From NCBI GenBank assembly GCA_905182985.1, contig CAJJDN010000057.1, positions 4,417 to 68,416 on the forward strand: DNA of 64,000 bases, in the 5' to 3' direction. Shown here piece by piece: positions 51,578 through 64,000 of the stretch (position 1 is the stretch's first letter; every line of letters begins with the position of its first letter). Source of the stretch: Paramecium sonneborni (taxonomy: Eukaryota; Ciliophora; Oligohymenophorea; Peniculida; Parameciidae). The position numbers and the translations under genes were made by a program. The notes beneath the pieces were generated by a model. It was not told the origin of the DNA, made no database searches, and worked only from the letters and a program-made list of their open reading frames with translations.

Positions 51578-52641
51578 ATGAATAAATATTAAATTTTATG
51601 GATATGCCTTCTATTAATAATATTAGCATTCTTAGCCTTGATACTTTTTATAATTTCACCTAATAAATGTTCCTCATTTATTAAAAAAATAAAATGTTAT
51701 TCTGGAAGTCTTCTAGATAAACTAATATTTCCAGCAAGATCTTGCAACAAATACTAATATATTAATGAAAAGGATATAAATTACTTTAATGTAGTGAAAA
51801 AAAATGAAAAATTAGGTATGAATTATTTCAATAGTAGAACAAGAGATTTAAAACTAAAATTGCTCAAGTTTAGAATGTAAAAGAACTGTTCCTTATGCTT
51901 TTCTTTAAAATGAGAAATTTAAAAATACAAAAAACTATGTAATTTATTTTCATGGAAATGGAGAAACAATGTAAATGATTGATTATATTAAAAAAGTGAT
52001 GAAGCATCAGAATTTGTTAAATTGCTTATGAACTAATTAAAATTTCATGCTTTTTTAATAGAGTATCCTTAATATGGTATATATAATCATGATGTGACGA
52101 ATGCCTAAATAATTTTAGAAGATTCTATTCAAGCATATAATAGAATAAAAGAAGAATATAAATTAGAGGATTCTTAAATTTTAATATTTGGAAGGTAAAA
52201 TTTATTTAAAAGAAATAGATCAATAGGAACAGGACCAGCTATATATGTTGCATCTTAAGTTTAATGTAAAGGCTTGATTGTTATATCTGCTTACCGATCT
52301 ATAATATAATAAGTTAGAGGAATGCTCTTTGGAATAGGTTTTCTAGTCAGTAAATTTATGGAGGAAAGGTTTAATAATGAGGAAAGAATATCAAATATTC
52401 AATGTCCTACATTATATATTCATGGTCTTCTTGATACTCTTATTCCTCATACTCATTCAATTTTTCTAAATAAAAAGTAAATTTTAAATTTCATTAAAGA
52501 TAGCAAAATTCACATCCAGAATCTTAAGTGAAATTAGAAACATTTGCTGGAATGAATCATAATAACATATCTCAATTCACATATGAAATTTCAGAAAAAA
52601 TTGGATTTTTTTTTGAAGAACTAAATAAAAGTTCTCATTGA
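51578..52641 (+). CDS. membrane-anchored alpha/beta hydrolase, copy 2
   Basis: 322 residues after removing four introns (22, 26, 24 and 23 nt). It has the same plan as the gene before it: N-terminal helix (LLLIILAFLALILFIIS), YVIYFHGNGETM, FLIEYPQYGIY (Gln, encoded by TAA, where copy 1 has Gly), FGRSIGTGPAIYVASQ with the catalytic Ser, IHGLLDTLIPH with the Asp and AGMNHNN with the His. The introns after HGN-(A/G)-E-(D/T)-M and inside GRSIG lie at identical positions in both copies; two further introns are private to this copy. Sequence identity outside the motifs is low, so the tandem duplication is old. Confidence 0.87.
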
Positions 52642-53585: not shown

Positions 53586-54490
53586 ACTAATACAATTTAT
53601 TTATATCTTACCTTGTACTACTTGTAAAGAATTGAGTATCCATGACAAAATAATTAAAATATTGACAAATATAAATGCCAACAAAATTACATAAAAACTT
53701 AACTTCATTATCAATTCTCAAAATCTAATTTATTTTTTATGACGCATTTTTATTCTAAATTCTAAATTCAATTTTAACTATTTATTTTTCTTATTTAATT
53801 GTCCAAACTAATTTTGCTTCAAAAACTATTTATTTTATATTTCTACATACTGATTTATAATTTAAATTGCAAAAAGTCACAAATCTTATCCTAAAATAAA
53901 AAAAATCACCATTTTCTCATTCAATCTTATTTAAAACTTAATATTATATAAGGCATGATAATTTATCAAATTTTGAATTAGATAAATATAAATTTAATTT
54001 ATGATATTTACCCAAACATTTTATAAAGCTACTAAGATTAAATATTATTAAATTTTCATGGTTTTGTAGATCTTGAAAATTACAGCATAAATTTTTAAAT
54101 TTTAAATAGCCATTATTTGCAATAAATAATAGTAATTTATTAAGGCAGATAAATATTTAATTATTCACTTAATAAATATATTCAGTTTATTATTTTGAAT
54201 TAATTTTCGTTTTAAATTACAAAATAATTTCTTGGGTGTTTGTGGTTATTTTAAAATAATTTTCTAAATGTAAACATTTTAAAAAGACTATGCTATTGGA
54301 AAAATTTGATTATATTAAGGATAAATTTATTTATATATTAACTCTATTTTCCTCTTATATTAATTTATCTCACATCAATTAAAATAATATATATAAATCT
54401 CCTAGTCTTATGATAGATAATCTTAAGGGTTATTTTTACATCTACTCATAACCATATACGAACATTCATCAACACACAAAAGTAACAAAT
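53586..54490. other. long AT-rich intergenic region
   Basis: About 900 bp between divergent genes, unusually long for this gene-dense sequence. I see no coding frame, RNA gene or clear repeat. It would contain the promoter of the pseudo-histidine-kinase pair. Confidence 0.45.
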
Positions 54491-57400
54491 ATGATTTCTA
54501 TTTACCAACTTTTTGATATGATTATCACAACATTAGATGCATGCATATAAAATGTAGATGGTACAAGAAGAATTTTAATAGCAAGAATTATTGTATATAT
54601 AATATATATCTTTTAGGTTTAAGCAGGATTACTGATACTATTTTGGTTGATTTTTAACTGTTTAAGAAAATTAAAAAATGGGTTTCTAAATGTTGCTACA
54701 TTTATATATTTTATTTCACTTTTTATTTGCTGGACTGAAACTGACTATTATTTATTTTATGAATAGATGAAACCCTATACAAGTTATACAGCTGAAATTT
54801 ATACCTTGTTATTAGCATTAGTGATATTGCAAGAATCTTAAGTTTGTTAAACAATATCTCTATTATTTTCGTTATTCTACTCTCTTTTTCGGTATAAATA
54901 TATTATAAAATATAGAATCTAACTATTCTAAAATAAAATTGATATTCTTTCTTCAATTAGGATAGTTTTAATACATGTCAGCTTTTAAATATTTTTGTTG
55001 TCATTACCATAGCAGAAGTAGAAATTAAATAATTAACTTGTATTCTTGGGTTAGCAGTCTAAAAATTATGTTCCAATTCATAGTAATAGATAATCATAAA
55101 TAAATTAATAATTGAGACTTTCTACGTATATAAATCAACAAGATTTTGATTAAAAATAAAGATTAAAGAATAATATTAAAGAAAATGAAGTTGCAGAATC
55201 TGAAGAAAATAGATTAGATGTAGAGAGGTAAAATTTAGATTAATTCTATGAAAATGTGTTAAATAATATATAAATAGGAATATTTATTCTAGATAATTTG
55301 TAAAGTTCAGTTAGATCTATAAATCCTTATATGTCACATTTAGTATTAAAGGATGATTAATTAAGTGATGAATTTCTAAATTATGAAATGTTTGATTTTG
55401 GTATTGCCTTTGAGGACAATTTAACAGTTTTGCCAAAGTTCCATAGAAGTAAAGATATTGGAAATTTTGTTAAATTTATGCAAACTCTTGAGTAAGAATA
55501 TTTTTTATTATTATTGTGCTAAGAGTATAAATTATGAAAATGGAAATATCGGATTGAAGGAGGTTCAATTTTTTCATAAGTCCATGAAAATGAAAACACT
55601 GATTGAACATTTATTACCTTTTCAGCATTTTAAATTCAATTAATGTTAAAATTTAATTGATTTTTCTCTAAAAATATATCTTAAAAAAGGTATTTTATAT
55701 TATAATATATAATATTCAGATAATCTTTATACATGTGTAGTTTTATCCCCAATATTATCAAGACACAGACCTTAATTAATCTTATTTGTATCAGATTTAA
55801 CAGATGAACCATTTATGACACAATTAAATTAATTTAATTAGAATAGTGATTTATTGGTTTCAGATATATCTTAGAAAATTAAGTAACCATTAAATTGTAC
55901 AATATCAATGTTGGAAATTACAATTGTATATTATTATATAATAATTAATTAGCATTCTGTTCCATTTGAAATTTAGGAGAAGTATTTAAATCCAGCTCTT
56001 GCAGGTTGTAAATTATTGATCAGTACAGCAAATGATATACTTGATTATGTTACAATAAGAAAAAAAGGTAAATTAGAATTATGTTAAATGGATGTTCATA
56101 TAAGGTATGTTTAATAAATAAAATTAGGGAATTTATATCTGATTCAATAAATATAATAAAATCATAAGCATTATTTAGAGGATTGTAGATACAAGTTAAT
56201 ATTCGACATAATGTGCCTGCATTTTTTAGAACTGATCCAAATAGATTGAGATAAATATTATTAAATCTTTTAGTAAGTTCTATTCAAGCTACTATAAATG
56301 GAACAATTGTTGTATCAGCAACCAAATCTACATTAATGTAGGATCATATTGAACTTACTATTAAAGTATAAGCATCAGAAATCAATTAATCTGTTTTAAA
56401 AACTATTGATAAAACTGTAAGATTTTTTAAATCTTAAAATTTATTGGCATCAACTATGATAGATTTAGCAAATGCTGGTCGTAAATATAGTCAATCAATT
56501 TTAATAGCATTTTGTTTATCATTAAGTATTTCAACAATTCCTTTTGAATATCATTATGAGAAGAATATAGATCATGAAGAGTTTTATTTTATAATTTAAA
56601 TTTAAAACAAAAATCCAAACTTTTCATAACAATTAAATTTTAAAAGATAATCTGCTCTTAGTATTCAATAATAGAGTTTTAAATAATCATTTTAAATTGA
56701 TTAAGGGTTTAAAAGGCATTAATCATCGCGATAAAGTTTATTTGATAAAGCAAGCATATCAATTTAAGGATAATTAGAGAAATAGAAATTGAAATAGTAA
56801 TAATAATAATAATAACAGAAATTACAATCTTAATCTTAAGTATTGGTTACTTAACCTTAAAGAAAAGAATCAGCCTTTAAATTATCGACATCTTTTGGTT
56901 AATAAAATTAATCTCGTTTTATAGTACCACGAACATCTTAAGGAGATATTGATGTTGATTTTTTACCTACTTTTAAAACAATAAAGTCATAGGATCAAAG
57001 TAAAAAGATTAAATAAATGCTTTCTCATTCTAAATCAGATATATCGATAGTTTCAGAGTAGGAATCAAAAGAATCAAAAGGTGAAAATGAAAGTTCTCAT
57101 AATAGTTTAGATGTAGGAAAGCAATTAGATTAATTTTTATATAAATAAACAAATGAAAGTGGATAGATAAATGAAAATGGTTCTCCTTTGGTAGTGATGT
57201 AATAATCAATTGCATATACATACAATAATAATGTTACACCAAGTAGAAGAGATTCAATTTTAACATTTGGTGGTAGATCAAGTATGTTTTCATCAATGAG
57301 ATATTCAGCTAGTATTATGTAACCAAATGATTTAATTGATTGTTTTGAAAAGATGGAAAGAATTAAACAATAAAAATATACATAAAAATGTTAAGTATTT

Positions 57401-57818
57401 ATATTAATTTAATTTAAAGTGTCCAAGAATATTGATTTGTGAGTAAAATGATTTTGATTTATATGCTGTATCCCATTAATTAGGAAATATTGGAATGAAT
57501 TATGATTACACTATGTAAAGAACTTAAATACATGAGAAACTAAAAACTGCTTATGAGGTAGAGAAATCATGTTGCAAAGGATATCAATTAATATTGATTA
57601 GTGTAGAATTTGTAGATGAAGAATTAGGAGAATAATGTAATTTGATTAAAAATATAAATTCTTAATTCAAAAAGGAAGCTAGAATTATTGGATTAATAGG
57701 ATTTCATGATGATGAAAATAGGATGGCAATTAAGAAACTACCATTTCATGATTTTCTATCAAAACCTTTAATGATAGATGCTTTATTGTTTATACTAGCA
57801 AAATGGGTCAAATTGTGA
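54491..57818 (+). CDS. membrane pseudo-hybrid histidine kinase, copy 1
   Basis: Six introns (24, 34, 30, 27, 23 and 25 nt) leave an exact 1054-residue frame. Four hydrophobic segments lie in residues 35-190 (e.g. LLILFWLIFNCL, VATFIYFISLFICW). A PAS-like stretch NNIQIGIFILDN follows. The dimerisation helix reads ISQKIKQPLNCTISMLE, matching S-H-E-x-R-T-P-L-N but with Gln for the phospho-acceptor His. The ATPase-like domain has RLRQILLNLLVSSIQ with Ser for the N-box Asn and lacks DxGxG and GLGL boxes. A Gln/Ser-rich linker of about 250 residues (eight Gln in a row) leads to a receiver-like domain, PRILICEQNDFDLYAV, LILISVEFVDEEL (Ser for the phospho-Asp) and LSKPLMIDALLF (Lys kept). The fold looks kept and the chemistry lost; a scaffold or sensor role is inferred. 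Confidence 0.85.
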
Positions 57819-57924
57819 TTGTTAAATTAATAAATAATTTATATAGTAATATATGCTCATGATATCAAATTACTTTAAGTTAAACACTGATACATATTAG
57901 CACTTTATTTTATGGAAATCAACG

Positions 57925-60900
57925 ATGACCATTGTATCCTTGTATTAGTGTTTCGATATTGTGTTAACCATTTCTTCAGCTTTGAATTATGAGATTGAAG
58001 GACAAAAACTAGTTTTTATTTATCGCATCATGGTAATGCAATTAATTAATATCTTAGATCTAAGTATTTTTAATCATTGCTTTTCATATTGCAATGAATA
58101 AGATGAAGAGAGAAACTGCTTTTTTAATTAATATAATCACATTGCTTAAATATTTCAGTCTAATTATTTTATGGTGTGAAACTAATTATGATTTAGTTTT
58201 TACAAATGAATATGAGTAAAGAAGTTATTCTTTTGAAATTTATGGAATTATGATATTGTTTCTAATTGCCATTGAATCATAACTTTGTAGAACACTTATA
58301 ATCATTTTTTCTCTCTTTTATTCTCTTCTAAGGTATAATTTAAAACATTAACTTTAGATTTCCTTCATTTACTAATAACCTCGAAACAATTGGATCTATA
58401 AGAATCATTTTTGGACATGTTATAATCTAATCTTTATCACTCTATCACTTATATCAAACTTAAAACTCTAATGAAGCATTCATTTCTAGAAATTTAACTC
58501 CTTTGCTTACTTAAAGAGCGATTCATACTAATACTTAAAGAGAAGTAACTGAACCACAAAAATAAAAAAATAACATACAAGATTTACAAAATGATGAATT
58601 CGAAAATCTCAACAATTTAAAACAGTTAGAAGAACAGTATGAATTACTATTAATTAATTTTTAATGTGGAATCTATATTTTTGAAAATGCTTAGTAACCT
58701 ATGAGAATTATTAATTCATTCATGTCCCATATTGTTTTAATCAATGAATTATTAAATCCAGAGTTGACCCAACTTGAATTATATGATTTTGGTTTACTTT
58801 AAGAAGAATCATGTACCATTTTACCAAGTTTTCATCGAAGTAAAGACATCAGTAATTTTATCAAATTCACTTAAACCCTTGAGTATTAATATAACAATAT
58901 ATTTGAACTTAGAATATATAATTTGAAAATTTATAAACTGAAGAAAAAAAAGAAATTCAATTTTTTTGTAGAAAAATGTAAGTACAAACCTTAATAGAAC
59001 ATTTGCTTGCTTTTTAACATATAAAATTTAATTTAACAAACTTTGCTTTAGATTTTTCATTAAAAATTTATTTAAAAAAAGGTTATTCTTAAAATAATAT
59101 TTTATAGATAAACTTTACACTCAACTCATTTTAAATCCTGTAATCATCTAAAACAAACCTTAGATTATATTATACATAAATGATTTAACTGAAGAACCAT
59201 TTATTCTATAACTTTAATAGTATCTAAAAAATAGCGATGACATAATTCAAACTATATCCTAAAAAATTAAAGAACCTTTAAATTGTACATTATCAATGTT
59301 AGAATTAGTTTAAGTAATTAATTTATATTATTTTAAAATAGAAAGAAGTTAATTTAGATCTATAAACTAAATATATAGATCCTGCCTTAGCTGGATGTAA
59401 ATTACTTATAAGTACTGCAAATGACATCTAAGATTATGTTACTTTACATAAAAAAAATAAATTAGATCGTAATTTAATGGATATTCACACAAGAGAATTT
59501 ATTTCAGATTGTTTAAACATCATAAAAGCTTAAGCTATATTTAGAGGATTGAATATATAAGTACATATAAAACAAAATGTTCCTATGTTTTTAAGAACTG
59601 ATCCTAATAGAGTTCGATAAATTTTATTGAATTTGTTAAGTAATAATATAATTAACTTTAGTAAAATCTATCTAAGTTACTATTAATGGAAGTATAGAAA
59701 TTTCTTGTTAAAAATCACCTTTGTTGGTTGATCACATTGAAATAATAATAAAAGTTATGGCTCAAAGTATTAATGAAGGGATTCTAGATGATGTTGAATA
59801 AACATTAAAACATCTAAAATAATAGACTTTAGTTAGTAAATAAGTAATAGACATTGTTGCAACATCAAAACAATATTCTTTTTCTATCATTACAGCATTT
59901 TATATATCTTTAGCTGTTGCTATTATGCCTTTTGAATTTAATTCTATAAAAACTGATGATGGTACTTAGTTTTATTTTATTTTATTGATTAAAAATGAAA
60001 ATCCAAATTTTAATAAGTAACTATCATAAAAAAGATAATCTGCATTAATTGCAAATAAATCTCAATATCATTAAGTATTTGGTTAAAGTAGCTAATTTAA
60101 AAGGCATTAATCATAACGATTAACAGAAATAAGTAGAATTTAAGTATAAGAAAAATTAAAAAAAATGAAAAGAGAATCTTAAGAAGAAACAATTTCAGGA
60201 AAAATGGATACATAATTACCATAATTTGGATAGTCTGAACAATCTGATAATTTATAACCTGTAAAATCTTACTCTGTTTCTTAAATCTCAGAATAGGATG
60301 ACTCATAATAGAGTTCCTCATCATAAGATTCAAAGGATGAAATGGTAAAGGCAGAATTTGATGGTGATATTTAATCAAGTAAATCATCACTTTAAATAAA
60401 TGAAAAAATTGAGAAAATAGATAAATAGAAAAAACCTTCTTAATTTCTTGAAACTATGATACGTGTTAAAGAACCTCAAGCAAGAAAAATATCTGTTAGT
60501 ATAATCTAATCAAGACTCACTCCATAAGTATCATAATAAGTTTAATCAAATTAAAGAGATTCATTACTTACTTTTGGAGGACGTTCATCTGTTTATAATT
60601 CAATGAGAGTTTCTTCAGTAAATTTAGGTCCAAATGAATTACTAGATTGTTTTGAGAAAATGGAGAGAATTAAATAATAGTAATTTATTTATAAATGCTA
60701 AGTAAATATGTAAATTTTATTTTAGTGTCCGAAGATTTTAATTTGTGAATAGAATGATTTTGATTTATATGCTATATCTCATTAATTAAGCAACCTCAAA
60801 ATTCCATACATTTATACAATGTAGAGAATGCATATTGTAGATTAACTAAAGAAATAATTTTCATAATTTAAAACCTGTTGTAAAGGGTATCATATAATTT

Positions 60901-61124
60901 TTGTTGGAGTTGAATATCTAAATGATTAATTAAGTTCTGATTGTGCTAATATAAAGGCTGTACTTTCTGAGTATTAAAAGGAAACAAGATTAATAGGATT
61001 AATTGGATTTTAAGATGAAGACAGTAAGATGGCAATAAAGAAGTTAGCATTTCATGATTGTTTGTAAAAACCTATAATGATTGATGCTTTGTTATTCATT
61101 TTAGCTAAATGGGTAAAGTTGTGA
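57925..61124 (+). CDS. membrane pseudo-hybrid histidine kinase, copy 2
   Basis: Tandem paralogue of the preceding gene, starting MTIVSLYQCFDIVLTISS, with seven introns (25, 25, 30, 26, 34, 22, 24 nt). Domain order is the same: membrane helices, PAS-like NFQCGIYIFEN, dimerisation helix ISQKIKEPLNCTLSMLE (again Gln for His), VRQILLNLLIKSIQ, a Ser/Gln-rich linker and a receiver-like domain PKILICEQNDFDLYAI. There the phospho-Asp position is Gly (IIFVGVEYLND) and the conserved Lys is Gln (CLQKPIMIDALL). The spliced length is one base short of a multiple of three. Alignment with copy 1 places the missing base near the A8 run at about 58943-58950, so this is a sequence error or the start of decay. 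Otherwise about 1004 residues. Confidence 0.78.
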
Positions 61125-61274: not shown

Positions 61275-63106
61275 ATGAAAGCAGTAATTGAAAAAGTTAA
61301 AGGAAATATATCAGTACATAGAATGACTATAAAGGATGTAGTATAAGAAGTTCTGAAGAAGTCTGATCCTGAATTCAATGATGATGAAGAATTGAATGTA
61401 AAAATATGAATAAAATTTATTTTACAGATAATGGTTTAATTGTTAAAGAAATAGCCAACATAAAGAACATAATTGGATGTGGATAAAATTAGATTGTCTT
61501 TCTTTAGATTTAAGTTTTTTTAGGAGTTGGAATAATAAATGGGAGCAGAAATGGTTTCTGGACTATATAAGCAATTGAGTTACGAAATATCATATAGGAG
61601 ATAAACCGTTTTCAATATAGGGGATTTGGGCAAAAAATTTTATATAATTTTGAAAGGAAGTGTTTGGGTATTAGTTTAAAAGAAAGGGTTGTAAGATGGA
61701 TCAGGTCCTACTGAGGAAGATCAAAAATAGGAGTAAGATCTAAAAGATGAAAAAAACAAAGAGATAATGGAAAATGTCAGAAGAAATACAAAGGCTAAAA
61801 GTAAGAAAATGAGGACCTAAGCATTTATTACATAAGTAACATTAGATGATATCTTTGCTACTATGACAGATAATTAATTCTTAGAGACTTAATTTCCTAC
61901 TTTATAAAAGGTCGGTTAAATAAATTCAGGAGAAAGCTTTGGAGAAATAGCTTTAACAAAACAAGTTCCAAGAACAGCAACAATTGTAGCAGCTGAAGAT
62001 ACTCATTTTGCCACAGTGACAAGGGATTAGTTTAATAAATTATTGTCTGCATATTATGAAGCATAATAAAAGATGAATATCGGGTTTCTAAGCAAAGTGG
62101 CAATATTTTCAGACTGGAATGATTAAATGTTAAACTAACTTTACTATCACTTTAAATAAGGAGAGAAAAAATTATTTTAAATAATATACAAAGAAAATGA
62201 AGATGCAAAGTAATCAATTACTAAATTAATTCTAGTTATATTTATTTATTAAAATCAGGAGAAGTTGAATTATCTATTAATATTGATTTAAATTAATCAT
62301 TATAGGCATCAAGCAATCCTGAACTATCTAAATTTTTTATTCAAAATCAACCTAAATTACAATAAGTTAGAATTTCAATTATTACACCTGGATAAATCTT
62401 TGGACATGAAGAAGTATTAGCTGGAATTAAAAGAGAATATAGAGCTATTAGTATAAGTTAAAAAATTGAGTATTTCTAATTGGATAAACAAAGATTTTTG
62501 TAATACTTTTAAAAAGGAGCAGCAATATAAAAATTATAAAAATTTGATTTAAAAAAAATAGGTTAAAGAACTAAATCTCATAATATTATTAAGTAAATAA
62601 GTAAAATTCCTCAGCCTATTGAACATAGAGAGATTCCTTTCATAGAATAAATGTTAAATTAATCTAACCTAAACAATTCTCATTAGAGAATTAAAAATCC
62701 TACATAACCTACAGGTTATTAAATGCTTTAAGGAAATGGCCATATTAATCAAGCACATTATAATTTTAGAAAAAATATTAATTTCCTTTTAGCTAATTTA
62801 AAAGATACAGAATCTTTATCTTTGGACAAAGCATATTTTCAAATGGAAGCTAGCAAAGGTTCTTCAATTAGTATAATTAATAAAGTATCTTTAAAATAGT
62901 TATTTAAGATATTTCCAGCAGCAGCAAGACCAAAATATGTAATACCTGATAGTTAAATTTCGCCAAAAACGATAATTAAGTCTTTGAAGTTACCAAAAAT
63001 TTTAACCAGAGTTGAGAAAGTAATGTTCAATCACGAAAATTCAGATTACTTAGACAGTTTCAAGGCATCATCTATACGAGGATAATCATTAAAAACAATT
63101 ATTTGA
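61275..63106 (+). CDS. cyclic-nucleotide-binding domain protein
   Basis: 591 residues after removing introns of 30 nt (with in-frame TGA) and 26 nt. The first cNMP domain begins VSGLYKQLSYEISYRRQTV and FNIGDLGKKFYIILKGSVW. A charged insert of about 90 residues follows (Lys/Glu/Gln-rich), then the phosphate-binding cassette GESFGEIALTKQVPRTATIV with the conserved Glu and Arg. A second, weaker cNMP-like domain reads YLLKSGEVELSI and PGQIFGHEEVLAGIKREYRA, without a canonical cassette. The C-terminus is Ser/Gln-rich. No kinase, channel or DNA-binding domain is present. It could be a cAMP/cGMP sensor of cilia or cortex; ligand specificity cannot be decided, though the Ala-Thr after the Arg resembles PKA-type sites. 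Confidence 0.85.
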
Positions 63107-63127: not shown

Positions 63128-64000
63128 ATGAGTATAATTTGTACAAAGTTGTTTGATCAATTTAATCAACTATACTCTTCTTTTAATCCATCATACTTCA
63201 TCATTGGTGTGACAGCATTCAACTAAGGAATTCAACATTTATCAGATTTAGCTGTAAATTACATGTTAAAAGATGAATATGGACTTTCACCAGCTATGAT
63301 GGGATTTTATTTAAGCTATACGACACTCCCTTGGATGATTAAACCATTTTGGGGAATTATTACAGACTCAAAACCATTACTAGGTTATAGAAGAAAATCT
63401 TATATTATTTTATTTGGAGTATTGGATGCATTAGGTTGGATTATGATGTCTAAAAATAAAGATGGTAGTTTATTAAGTGTATTGCTACTACTATTTTTAA
63501 TTTAATTATCAATTTGCTTTGTTAATGTAGTTGGAGAGGCTATTTTAGTAGAGGTAGCAGCATAGGCATAAAGAGAATAACGATAAGAGAATTTTTAACA
63601 TGGAGCATCAAGAAATGTATCGATATTCTTTGGAGTTAGAGCTGTTGGTTCTTTATTAAGTGCATATTCATCTGGAGCACTTTTACATTACTTTACTTAC
63701 TAACAAAGTATAATAAAATTTGAATAATAGTATTTTTGATAACATCAATTTTTCCTACTATTCTAGTTTTTGTTTCATTATTTTATTAAGAATAAAGAAT
63801 AGATATACAATAATTAGATGAAAATGATAGAAAAAATAATACTGTGTAATGTTTGAAAGATTTTTGGTAATTTTTTAAAAATCCATTAATTTACAAACCA
63901 GTTATCTTAATATTTGCTTTTATGATGGCTCCATCAAGTTCAACAATAATGTTTTTCTTTTATACTGAAGTACTTGGATTTGATCCAAAGTTTTTGGGAT
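63128..64000 (+). CDS. BT1/folate-biopterin transporter (partial)
   Basis: The 3' end lies outside the window. One 23-nt intron (63708-63730) is present. The N-terminal part shows BT1-family marks: GIQHLSDLAVNYMLKDEYG, LSPAMMGFYLSYTTLPW, IKPFWGIITDSKPLLGYRRK with the conserved R-R-K-S-Y, then VGEAILVEVAAQAQ and SGALLHYF. At least six hydrophobic helices are visible in the 280 residues present. The family transports folates and pterins in protists and plants, and belongs to the major facilitator superfamily. The substrate here is inferred from family only. Confidence 0.9.

What the first reader, a model, noticed from the sequence alone, without database searches (positions are those of the whole stretch)
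54491..61124. Tandem pair of giant pseudo-two-component proteins that have lost every catalytic residue
Both copies keep the full order membrane helices, PAS-like, dimerisation, ATPase-like, linker, receiver-like. The same substitutions occur in both: Gln for the phospho-acceptor His (codons TAG and TAA), a lost N-box Asn, no DxGxG/GLGL boxes, and a non-Asp phospho-acceptor in the receiver. Shared changes imply the losses predate the duplication, yet long frames were kept. That suggests selection for a non-catalytic sensor or scaffold. Residue losses are seen directly; the function is inference.
Basis: partly seen in the sequence, partly recalled or inferred. Interest (0 to 1): 0.8.

Follow-up and report, generated by a model that had tools for sequence, protein, structure and literature searches.

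The report
Catalytically dead sensor kinases in Paramecium
Two neighbouring Paramecium genes encode membrane sensor proteins built like bacterial-type hybrid histidine kinases that have lost the residues needed to pass on phosphate, yet evolution keeps their shape and some of their surfaces, so they probably work by binding partners rather than by chemistry.

Summary
The two genes are real, intron-containing Paramecium sonneborni genes (P0001, 100% to copy 2) in one Paramecium clade descended from hybrid histidine kinases. All 22 of 22 retrieved family proteins covering the H-box have Gln there; 23 of 23 lack the N-box Asn, both glycine boxes and the receiver Asp. Tetrahymena relatives show the same local sequence with catalytic residues intact, and intact hybrid kinases persist in P. 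tetraurelia and P. bursaria.

Profiles and models show that the DHp, ATPase-like and receiver folds survive. Between the copies, folded domains are constrained (dN/dS about 0.19-0.33; linkers 0.8-1.2, dS near saturation). In the pseudo-receivers helices 1 and 5 and strand 5 are now among the best-kept parts; the Asp site is not.

Best reading: a non-catalytic membrane scaffold or partner of phosphorelay proteins; ligand and partners unknown. Exceptions: the receiver Lys and one acidic residue remain; copy 2 has an unresolved frame jump; about 1,050 residues is not giant. New variant of known pseudo-kinases; interest 0.5.

The parts
54410..57818 (+). Copy 1 gene (pseudo-hybrid histidine kinase), start to TGA; introns 54593-54616, 54892-54915, 55492-55525, 55690-55719, 55926-55952, 56105-56127, 57395-57419.
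   Evidence: models; upstream ATG; P0013 and P0014 begin at the matching upstream sequence
54410..55054 (+). copy 1 membrane region, six helices in the models (hydropathy alone finds 3 at the strict and more at the loose threshold); two introns inside
   Evidence: helices 19-199 of the P0013 model; hydropathy; end mapped by offset from P0013
55247..55810 (+). copy 1 PAS-like region (boundaries approximate; introns 55492-55525 and 55690-55719 inside)
   Evidence: PAS_8 E=0.048, below cut-off; position
55848..56128 (+). copy 1 DHp (dimerisation and former phospho-acceptor) region, with introns 55926-55952 and 56105-56127 inside
   Evidence: HisKA E=0.0086, below cut-off; alignment to Tetrahymena kinases
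55872..55874 (+). copy 1 His site: Gln, codon TAG, in SQKIKQPLN
56129..56620 (+). copy 1 ATPase-like (CA) domain without N-box Asn, DxGxG or GxGLG
   Evidence: HATPase_c E=0.003, below cut-off; family profile match probability 99.5; fold of its orthologue P0013
56276..56278 (+). copy 1 N-box Asn site: Ser
   Evidence: residue and codon; coordinate counted positions
57420..57815 (+). copy 1 pseudo-receiver (DD to EQ, D to S at 57600, T to I, K kept)
   Evidence: family profile; no Response_reg hit on its own
57853..61124 (+). Copy 2 gene; introns 58033-58057, 58333-58357, 59082-59107, 59314-59341, 59640-59661, 60702-60725, plus an unresolved junction at 58883-58971. ATG 57859 or 57925 also possible
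   Evidence: P0001 is NCBI's protein for it
58883..58971 (+). copy 2 unresolved one-base frame jump near the end of the PAS-like region
   Evidence: the joins that keep a frame either drop a conserved peptide (such as an 89-nt intron) or keep the alternative frame
59230..59494 (+). copy 2 DHp region, with intron 59314-59341 inside
   Evidence: HisKA E=0.032, below cut-off
59260..59262 (+). copy 2 His site: Gln, codon TAA, in SQKIKEPLN
59495..60010 (+). copy 2 ATPase-like domain, with intron 59640-59661 inside; N-box Asn is Lys at about 59664
   Evidence: the N-box coordinate was counted positions
60726..61121 (+). copy 2 pseudo-receiver (DD to EQ, D to G at 60906, T to I, K kept)

Best explanation
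The two genes encode membrane proteins descended from a ciliate hybrid histidine kinase. Their ancestor lost the phospho-acceptor His, its neighbours in the H-box, the ATP-binding residues and the receiver's phospho-acceptor Asp before the paralogues split. They keep the dimerising helices, the ATPase-like fold and the receiver fold. They most likely work by binding, not by phosphotransfer. A signal sensed by the six-helix membrane part and the PAS-like region shifts a DHp dimer, possibly a mixed dimer with an intact hybrid kinase. The pseudo-receiver docks through its helix 1 and strand 5-helix 5 side onto a DHp or HPt partner, damping or redirecting a phosphorelay that intact Paramecium kinases carry out. 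Shown: descent, losses, fold, constraint between copies, and which parts are best kept. Inferred: absence of activity, partner, direction of effect and signal.
Against: No expression, interaction or phenotype data. No ligand or partner is known, and no intact kinase was retrieved from P. sonneborni itself (capped lists). The conservation comparison has a ceiling: catalytic columns are already near 0.8-0.97 in active kinases, so they cannot gain much. Some parts do not fit a simple shift: the N-box helix stays at 0.89 and the H-box at 0.94, helix 4 is only 0.68, and strand 2, not a known docking site, gains +0.30. The kept side could serve homodimerisation or folding alone. dS is near saturation and NG86 is crude in AT-rich DNA. 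Copy 2 may be broken. The well-scored model used 72 non-family kinases among 95 sequences; the family-only model has mean pLDDT 44 and does not test the receiver.
Confidence: 0.45

Rival explanations
1. Homomeric membrane receptor outside any phosphorelay: the whole module was turned into a non-phosphorylating receptor that signals to other proteins (like the plant phytochrome output module), with no tie to two-component partners.
For: Strong fold match to phytochrome A's kinase-related module. The pre-receiver motif (LTFGGRSS..PN.LLDCFEKM) is invariant at 20 of 50 columns in the family and may be a contact site of its own.
Against: The H-box stays as conserved as in active kinases although its His is gone (0.94 against 0.93), and the receiver side kept is one that HPt or DHp partners use (recalled knowledge), which hints at retained two-component docking.
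Confidence: 0.3
2. Decaying pseudogenes: the kinases became redundant, lost their residues, and are now drifting.
For: Copy 2 has an unresolved frame jump at 58883-58971, and NCBI's model of its paralogue P0002 reads the same alternative frame. Eight family proteins are annotated short: P0003, P0004, P0011, P0012, P0020 and P0029-P0031 (516-711 aa).
Against: 23 retrieved proteins in five species; short branches follow the long stem; dN/dS is 0.19-0.33 in folded domains against about 1 in linkers. Copy 1 has no TGA in 1,046 codons (about 1e-8 for random sequence of this composition; this overstates the case, because the splice model was chosen to stay open).
Confidence: 0.1
3. Remaining catalysis of another kind: phosphatase activity or an unconventional kinase.
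For: Copy 1 and the third clade have Gln at His+4 (SQKIKQP), and a Gln can position water in other phosphatase motifs (recalled). The receiver Lys is kept in 23 of 23 (22 in the table, P0012 read).
Against: Copy 2 and its group have Glu at His+4; Glu at His+1 is Lys in 20 of 22 and Arg in 2 of 22, reversing charge; the N-box Asn and both glycine boxes are gone. DivL, with Tyr for His, is reported without kinase and phosphatase activity.
Confidence: 0.1

Closest known systems
Ciliate hybrid histidine kinases (Tetrahymena P0033-P0036)
   Same: Order of DHp, CA, linker and C-terminal receiver; hydrophobic N-terminal segments in P0033 and P0036; shared local sequence in H-box, DHp helix 2 and receiver, including CxC and CC cysteines
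   Different: They keep His, N-box Asn, DTGIGI, GCGLGL, DD, Asp and Thr
DivL of Caulobacter (pseudo-histidine kinase)
   Different: Tyr, not Gln; the paper reports weak ATP-analogue binding by DivL; that DivL has no fused receiver is recalled
RetS of Pseudomonas (hybrid kinase that inhibits GacS)
   Different: RetS also takes phosphoryl groups and acts as a phosphatase (PMC5992135 abstract), so it keeps catalytic function
Plant phytochrome kinase-related module
   Different: No receiver, light-sensing input, soluble (recalled)
Bacterial pseudo-receivers
   Same: Receiver fold without the phospho-acceptor; alpha4-beta5-alpha5 named as the dimerisation surface of many (PMC12632262, passages)
   Different: Here fused to a dead kinase in a eukaryotic membrane protein, and helix 4 is not well kept

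Membership tests
Functional hybrid histidine kinase | Phospho-acceptor His in the H-box | tested here: not met
   Gln in both copies and in 22 of 22 family proteins covering the site
Functional hybrid histidine kinase | N-box Asn, DxGxG and GxGLG for ATP and Mg | tested here: not met
   0 of 23; in the profile alignment the equivalent positions are filled by other residues
Functional hybrid histidine kinase | Receiver DD, Asp, Thr/Ser, Lys | tested here: not met
   only Lys and one acidic residue kept
Histidine kinase superfamily by descent | DHp helical hairpin and Bergerat-type ATPase fold | tested here: met
   Pfam scores of the window proteins are below curated cut-offs
Pseudo-histidine kinase (descriptive class) | HK fold lacking residues needed for autophosphorylation, kept by selection | tested here: met
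Pseudo-histidine kinase (descriptive class) | Demonstrated absence of activity and a role in a two-component network | not testable with these tools
   needs biochemistry and interaction data
Pseudo-receiver | Receiver fold without phospho-acceptor Asp | tested here: met
PAS domain | PAS fold upstream of the DHp | tested here: inconclusive
   PAS_8 E=0.048 below cut-off in copy 1 only; low model confidence there

The most novel reading that the evidence does not exclude
Paramecium carries an old, expanded family of membrane hybrid histidine kinases in which all three phosphotransfer modules are dead. Selection now holds the dimerisation helices and the helix 1 and strand 5-helix 5 side of the receiver, so a complete two-component receptor signals only by conformation and docking, as a built-in partner or brake for the intact ciliate phosphorelay.
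Probability: 0.32. Interest if true: 0.7.

Novelty: new variant of a known kind. Interest (0 to 1): 0.5.

Why it matters
Pseudo-histidine kinases and pseudo-receivers are best documented in bacteria (recalled), where they are a minority: PMC12632262 (section 6) counts 0.9% of sampled bacterial HisKA domains (722 of 76,471) without the His. Here a eukaryotic clade has lost the chemistry in all modules of one protein and kept the architecture. That separates the catalytic from the docking role of each module by natural experiment. P. tetraurelia has at least three retrieved members (P0010, P0018, P0029), so a knock-down test in a standard laboratory species is feasible.

Tried and rejected
Pfam alone: the window proteins fall below curated cut-offs. 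With E up to 0.05, HisKA is seen in 21 of 23 family members, HATPase_c in 4 and Response_reg in 3, and the window's receivers alone give no Response_reg hit. A Pfam-only reading would have missed the receiver; profile and fold comparisons settled it.

Pure pseudogene: thought unlikely for the family, kept open for copy 2.

Intact member of the same clade in Paramecium: none among the 120 best of 582 listed or the 120 best of 323 listed. Both lists are cut and both scored only the candidates sharing most words, so absence is not shown. P. bursaria has an intact kinase (P0138), but no family member from it was listed.

Long (89 nt) intron for copy 2 at 58883-58971: mechanically possible and like NCBI's P0008, but it would remove a peptide that paralogues keep. 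A retained germline segment was considered, because PMC10195154 says that its P. sonneborni assembly contains micronucleus-derived sequence (passage); whether that is the assembly of this window is not known; not tested.

Synteny of the pair in other species rests only on equal 'longest contig' lengths (P0003/P0011 708,052; P0002/P0012 634,334; P0005/P0014 500,337), not on DNA.

Rows dropped: P0029, P0030 and P0059 from the tree because the crop pattern missed them, and P0031 not given; P0010 from the CA profile because its model is garbled there; P0031 from the core conservation set.

Literature: the listings of searches (several cut short, such as 30 of 53 and 15 of 57) named no paper on inactive histidine kinases in Paramecium. 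Only open-licence papers are held. A eukaryote-wide survey of sensor kinases, cited in PMC12632262, is not held, so prior mention cannot be excluded.

Full report
Source and gene models. The window is a Paramecium sonneborni scaffold: the NCBI protein P0001 from that species is 100% identical to copy 2 over the searched part. Read with table 6 (TGA the only stop) and 22-34 nt introns, copy 1 gives an uninterrupted 1,046-residue protein from ATG 54491, or 27 residues more from ATG 54410, where its orthologues begin. Copy 2 gives 302 and 702 residues on either side of one unresolved junction. The copies are 47.7% identical over 991 aligned codons. The next gene downstream matches a cyclic-nucleotide-binding domain, followed by a BT1-type transporter.

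What was lost. At the His site copy 1 has Gln (TAG, 55872) and copy 2 Gln (TAA, 59260). The N-box Asn is Ser or Lys, the receiver pair DD is EQ in both, the Asp is Ser or Gly, the Thr is Ile, and the Lys is kept. The same holds across the family. Of 23 retrieved Paramecium proteins (P0001-P0020, P0029-P0031), 22 cover the H-box and all 22 have Gln. At the N-box 10 have Lys, 4 Ser and 9 Thr. None has DxGxG or GxGLG, and none has Asp at the receiver site. The Lys is present in all 23 (22 from the table, P0012 read). All 224 other proteins returned by the three searches have a His in an H-box pattern. The proteins are representatives of 90%-identity clusters, so gene numbers are lower bounds.

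Descent. The family is separated from everything else in the listing by a wide score gap: 23 proteins at E of 4.4e-222 or better, then 1.2e-33 for an unnamed metagenomic protein and 4e-28 to 8e-24 for Tetrahymena hybrid kinases. Aligned to Tetrahymena, the H-box, the second DHp helix, the N-box helix and the receiver match closely, with the catalytic letters replaced. In a tree of 48 rows, 22 family rows (20 of the 23 retrieved proteins and the two window copies) form one clade with 100/100 support on a stem of 2.16 changes per column, followed by short branches. The position of that clade among ciliate kinases is not resolved (60/16; the tool warned of long branches). The losses are therefore older than the split of the three paralogue groups, and older than this tandem pair. 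Intact hybrid kinases exist in the genus: P0139 in P. tetraurelia, with a rhodanese domain, and P0138 in P. bursaria.

What is in print on ciliate histidine kinases, as far as seen: an expansion of the 'atypical histidine kinase' family in ciliates (PMC3341644, passages), expansion in hypotrichs linked to encystment (PMC10946202, passages), and up-regulation in symbiont-bearing P. bursaria (PMC4029085, passages). None of these passages speaks of inactive members.

Selection. NG86 dN/dS between the copies: membrane part 0.33, PAS 0.25, DHp 0.25, CA 0.32, receiver 0.19; linkers 0.82 and 1.17; whole 0.40. dS is 1.2-2.0 in the folded parts, so the ratios are rough, but the contrast with the linkers inside the same genes is an internal control.

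Which parts are kept. Over shared columns the 23 pseudo-receivers score 0.80 and 15 active ciliate-type receivers 0.60. In the pseudo-receivers strand 1 (0.98), helix 5 (0.95), the Lys turn (0.95), strands 4 and 5 (0.92) and helix 1 (0.90) stand out; the Asp site is 0.79, down from 0.90 in active ones, the Thr site 0.81, helices 2 to 4 0.65-0.68. The largest gains over active receivers are helix 5 (+0.45), strand 2 (+0.30), strand 5 (+0.29) and helix 1 (+0.28). In the kinase core (22 against 17 sequences, 0.80 against 0.66) the gains are +0.21 in DHp helix 2 and the second half of helix 1 (+0.14 in its first half), +0.23 in CA helix 1 and +0.27 in strands 2-3, but +0.06 in the N-box helix, +0.04 in the former ATP lid and +0.01 in the next helix; the H-box stays at 0.94 against 0.93 with Gln in place of His. 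Two cautions: catalytic columns are already near the ceiling in active kinases and cannot gain, and the N-box helix (0.89) and H-box are still well kept in absolute terms. What is solid is that helix 5, strand 5, helix 1 and the DHp helices are strongly held and that the Asp site and the former ATP lid are not special any more. That the helix 1 and strand 5-helix 5 side contacts DHp or HPt partners is recalled knowledge; PMC12632262 names alpha4-beta5-alpha5 as the dimerisation surface of many pseudo-receivers (passage), but helix 4 is not well kept here.

Mechanism. I read this as a membrane sensor that acts by binding. RetS shows that a kinase core can inhibit another kinase with its own dephosphorylation routes disabled (PMC5992135, section 8), and DivL shows that a His-less core can be a sensor rather than an enzyme (PMC4211667, section 12). 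The neighbours of the His are also changed: Glu at +1 is Lys (20 of 22) or Arg (2 of 22), and Thr at +4 is Gln or Glu, so the usual HisKA phosphatase residue (recalled) is gone as well; Gln at +4 in copy 1 leaves a small opening. Partner, ligand and direction are not known.

Limits. Copy 2's junction at 58883-58971 is unresolved; NCBI's model of its paralogue P0002, on another scaffold, shows the same alternative reading, which argues against a simple base-calling error but not against a shared defect or an unusual splice.

Noticed in passing
window 58883-58971: Copy 2 has a one-base frame jump that no single short canonical intron resolves; NCBI models of P0001 and its paralogue P0002 both read an alternative frame here.
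   Followed up: partly
window 57389-57391, 57420-57422 and 57570-57575 (copy 1; coordinates counted): CxC just before and CC inside the receiver are invariant in all 12 sequences of alignment A3, active Tetrahymena kinases included, though not in all active ciliate-type kinases (P0138 and P0139 lack CxC): a possible metal or redox site.
   Followed up: no
P0139 (Paramecium tetraurelia): An intact hybrid histidine kinase carries a rhodanese domain (Pfam PF00581 as listed), an unusual fusion unless the gene model joins two genes.
   Followed up: no
window about 57240-57394 and 60550-60701: The end of the linker holds a motif conserved across the family (DS.LTFGGRSS..SS....PN.L.DCFEKME), a possible phosphorylation or contact site.
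   Followed up: partly
window 57819-57852: Only about 34 bases separate the TGA of copy 1 from the most upstream ATG of copy 2.
   Followed up: no
window 61431-62200, 63128-63739 and 52028-52531: Neighbours: cyclic-nucleotide-binding domain protein (E 3.8e-13) and BT1-family transporter (E 1e-30) downstream; a weak serine-hydrolase match (FSH1, E 0.00076, below cut-off) upstream.
   Followed up: no
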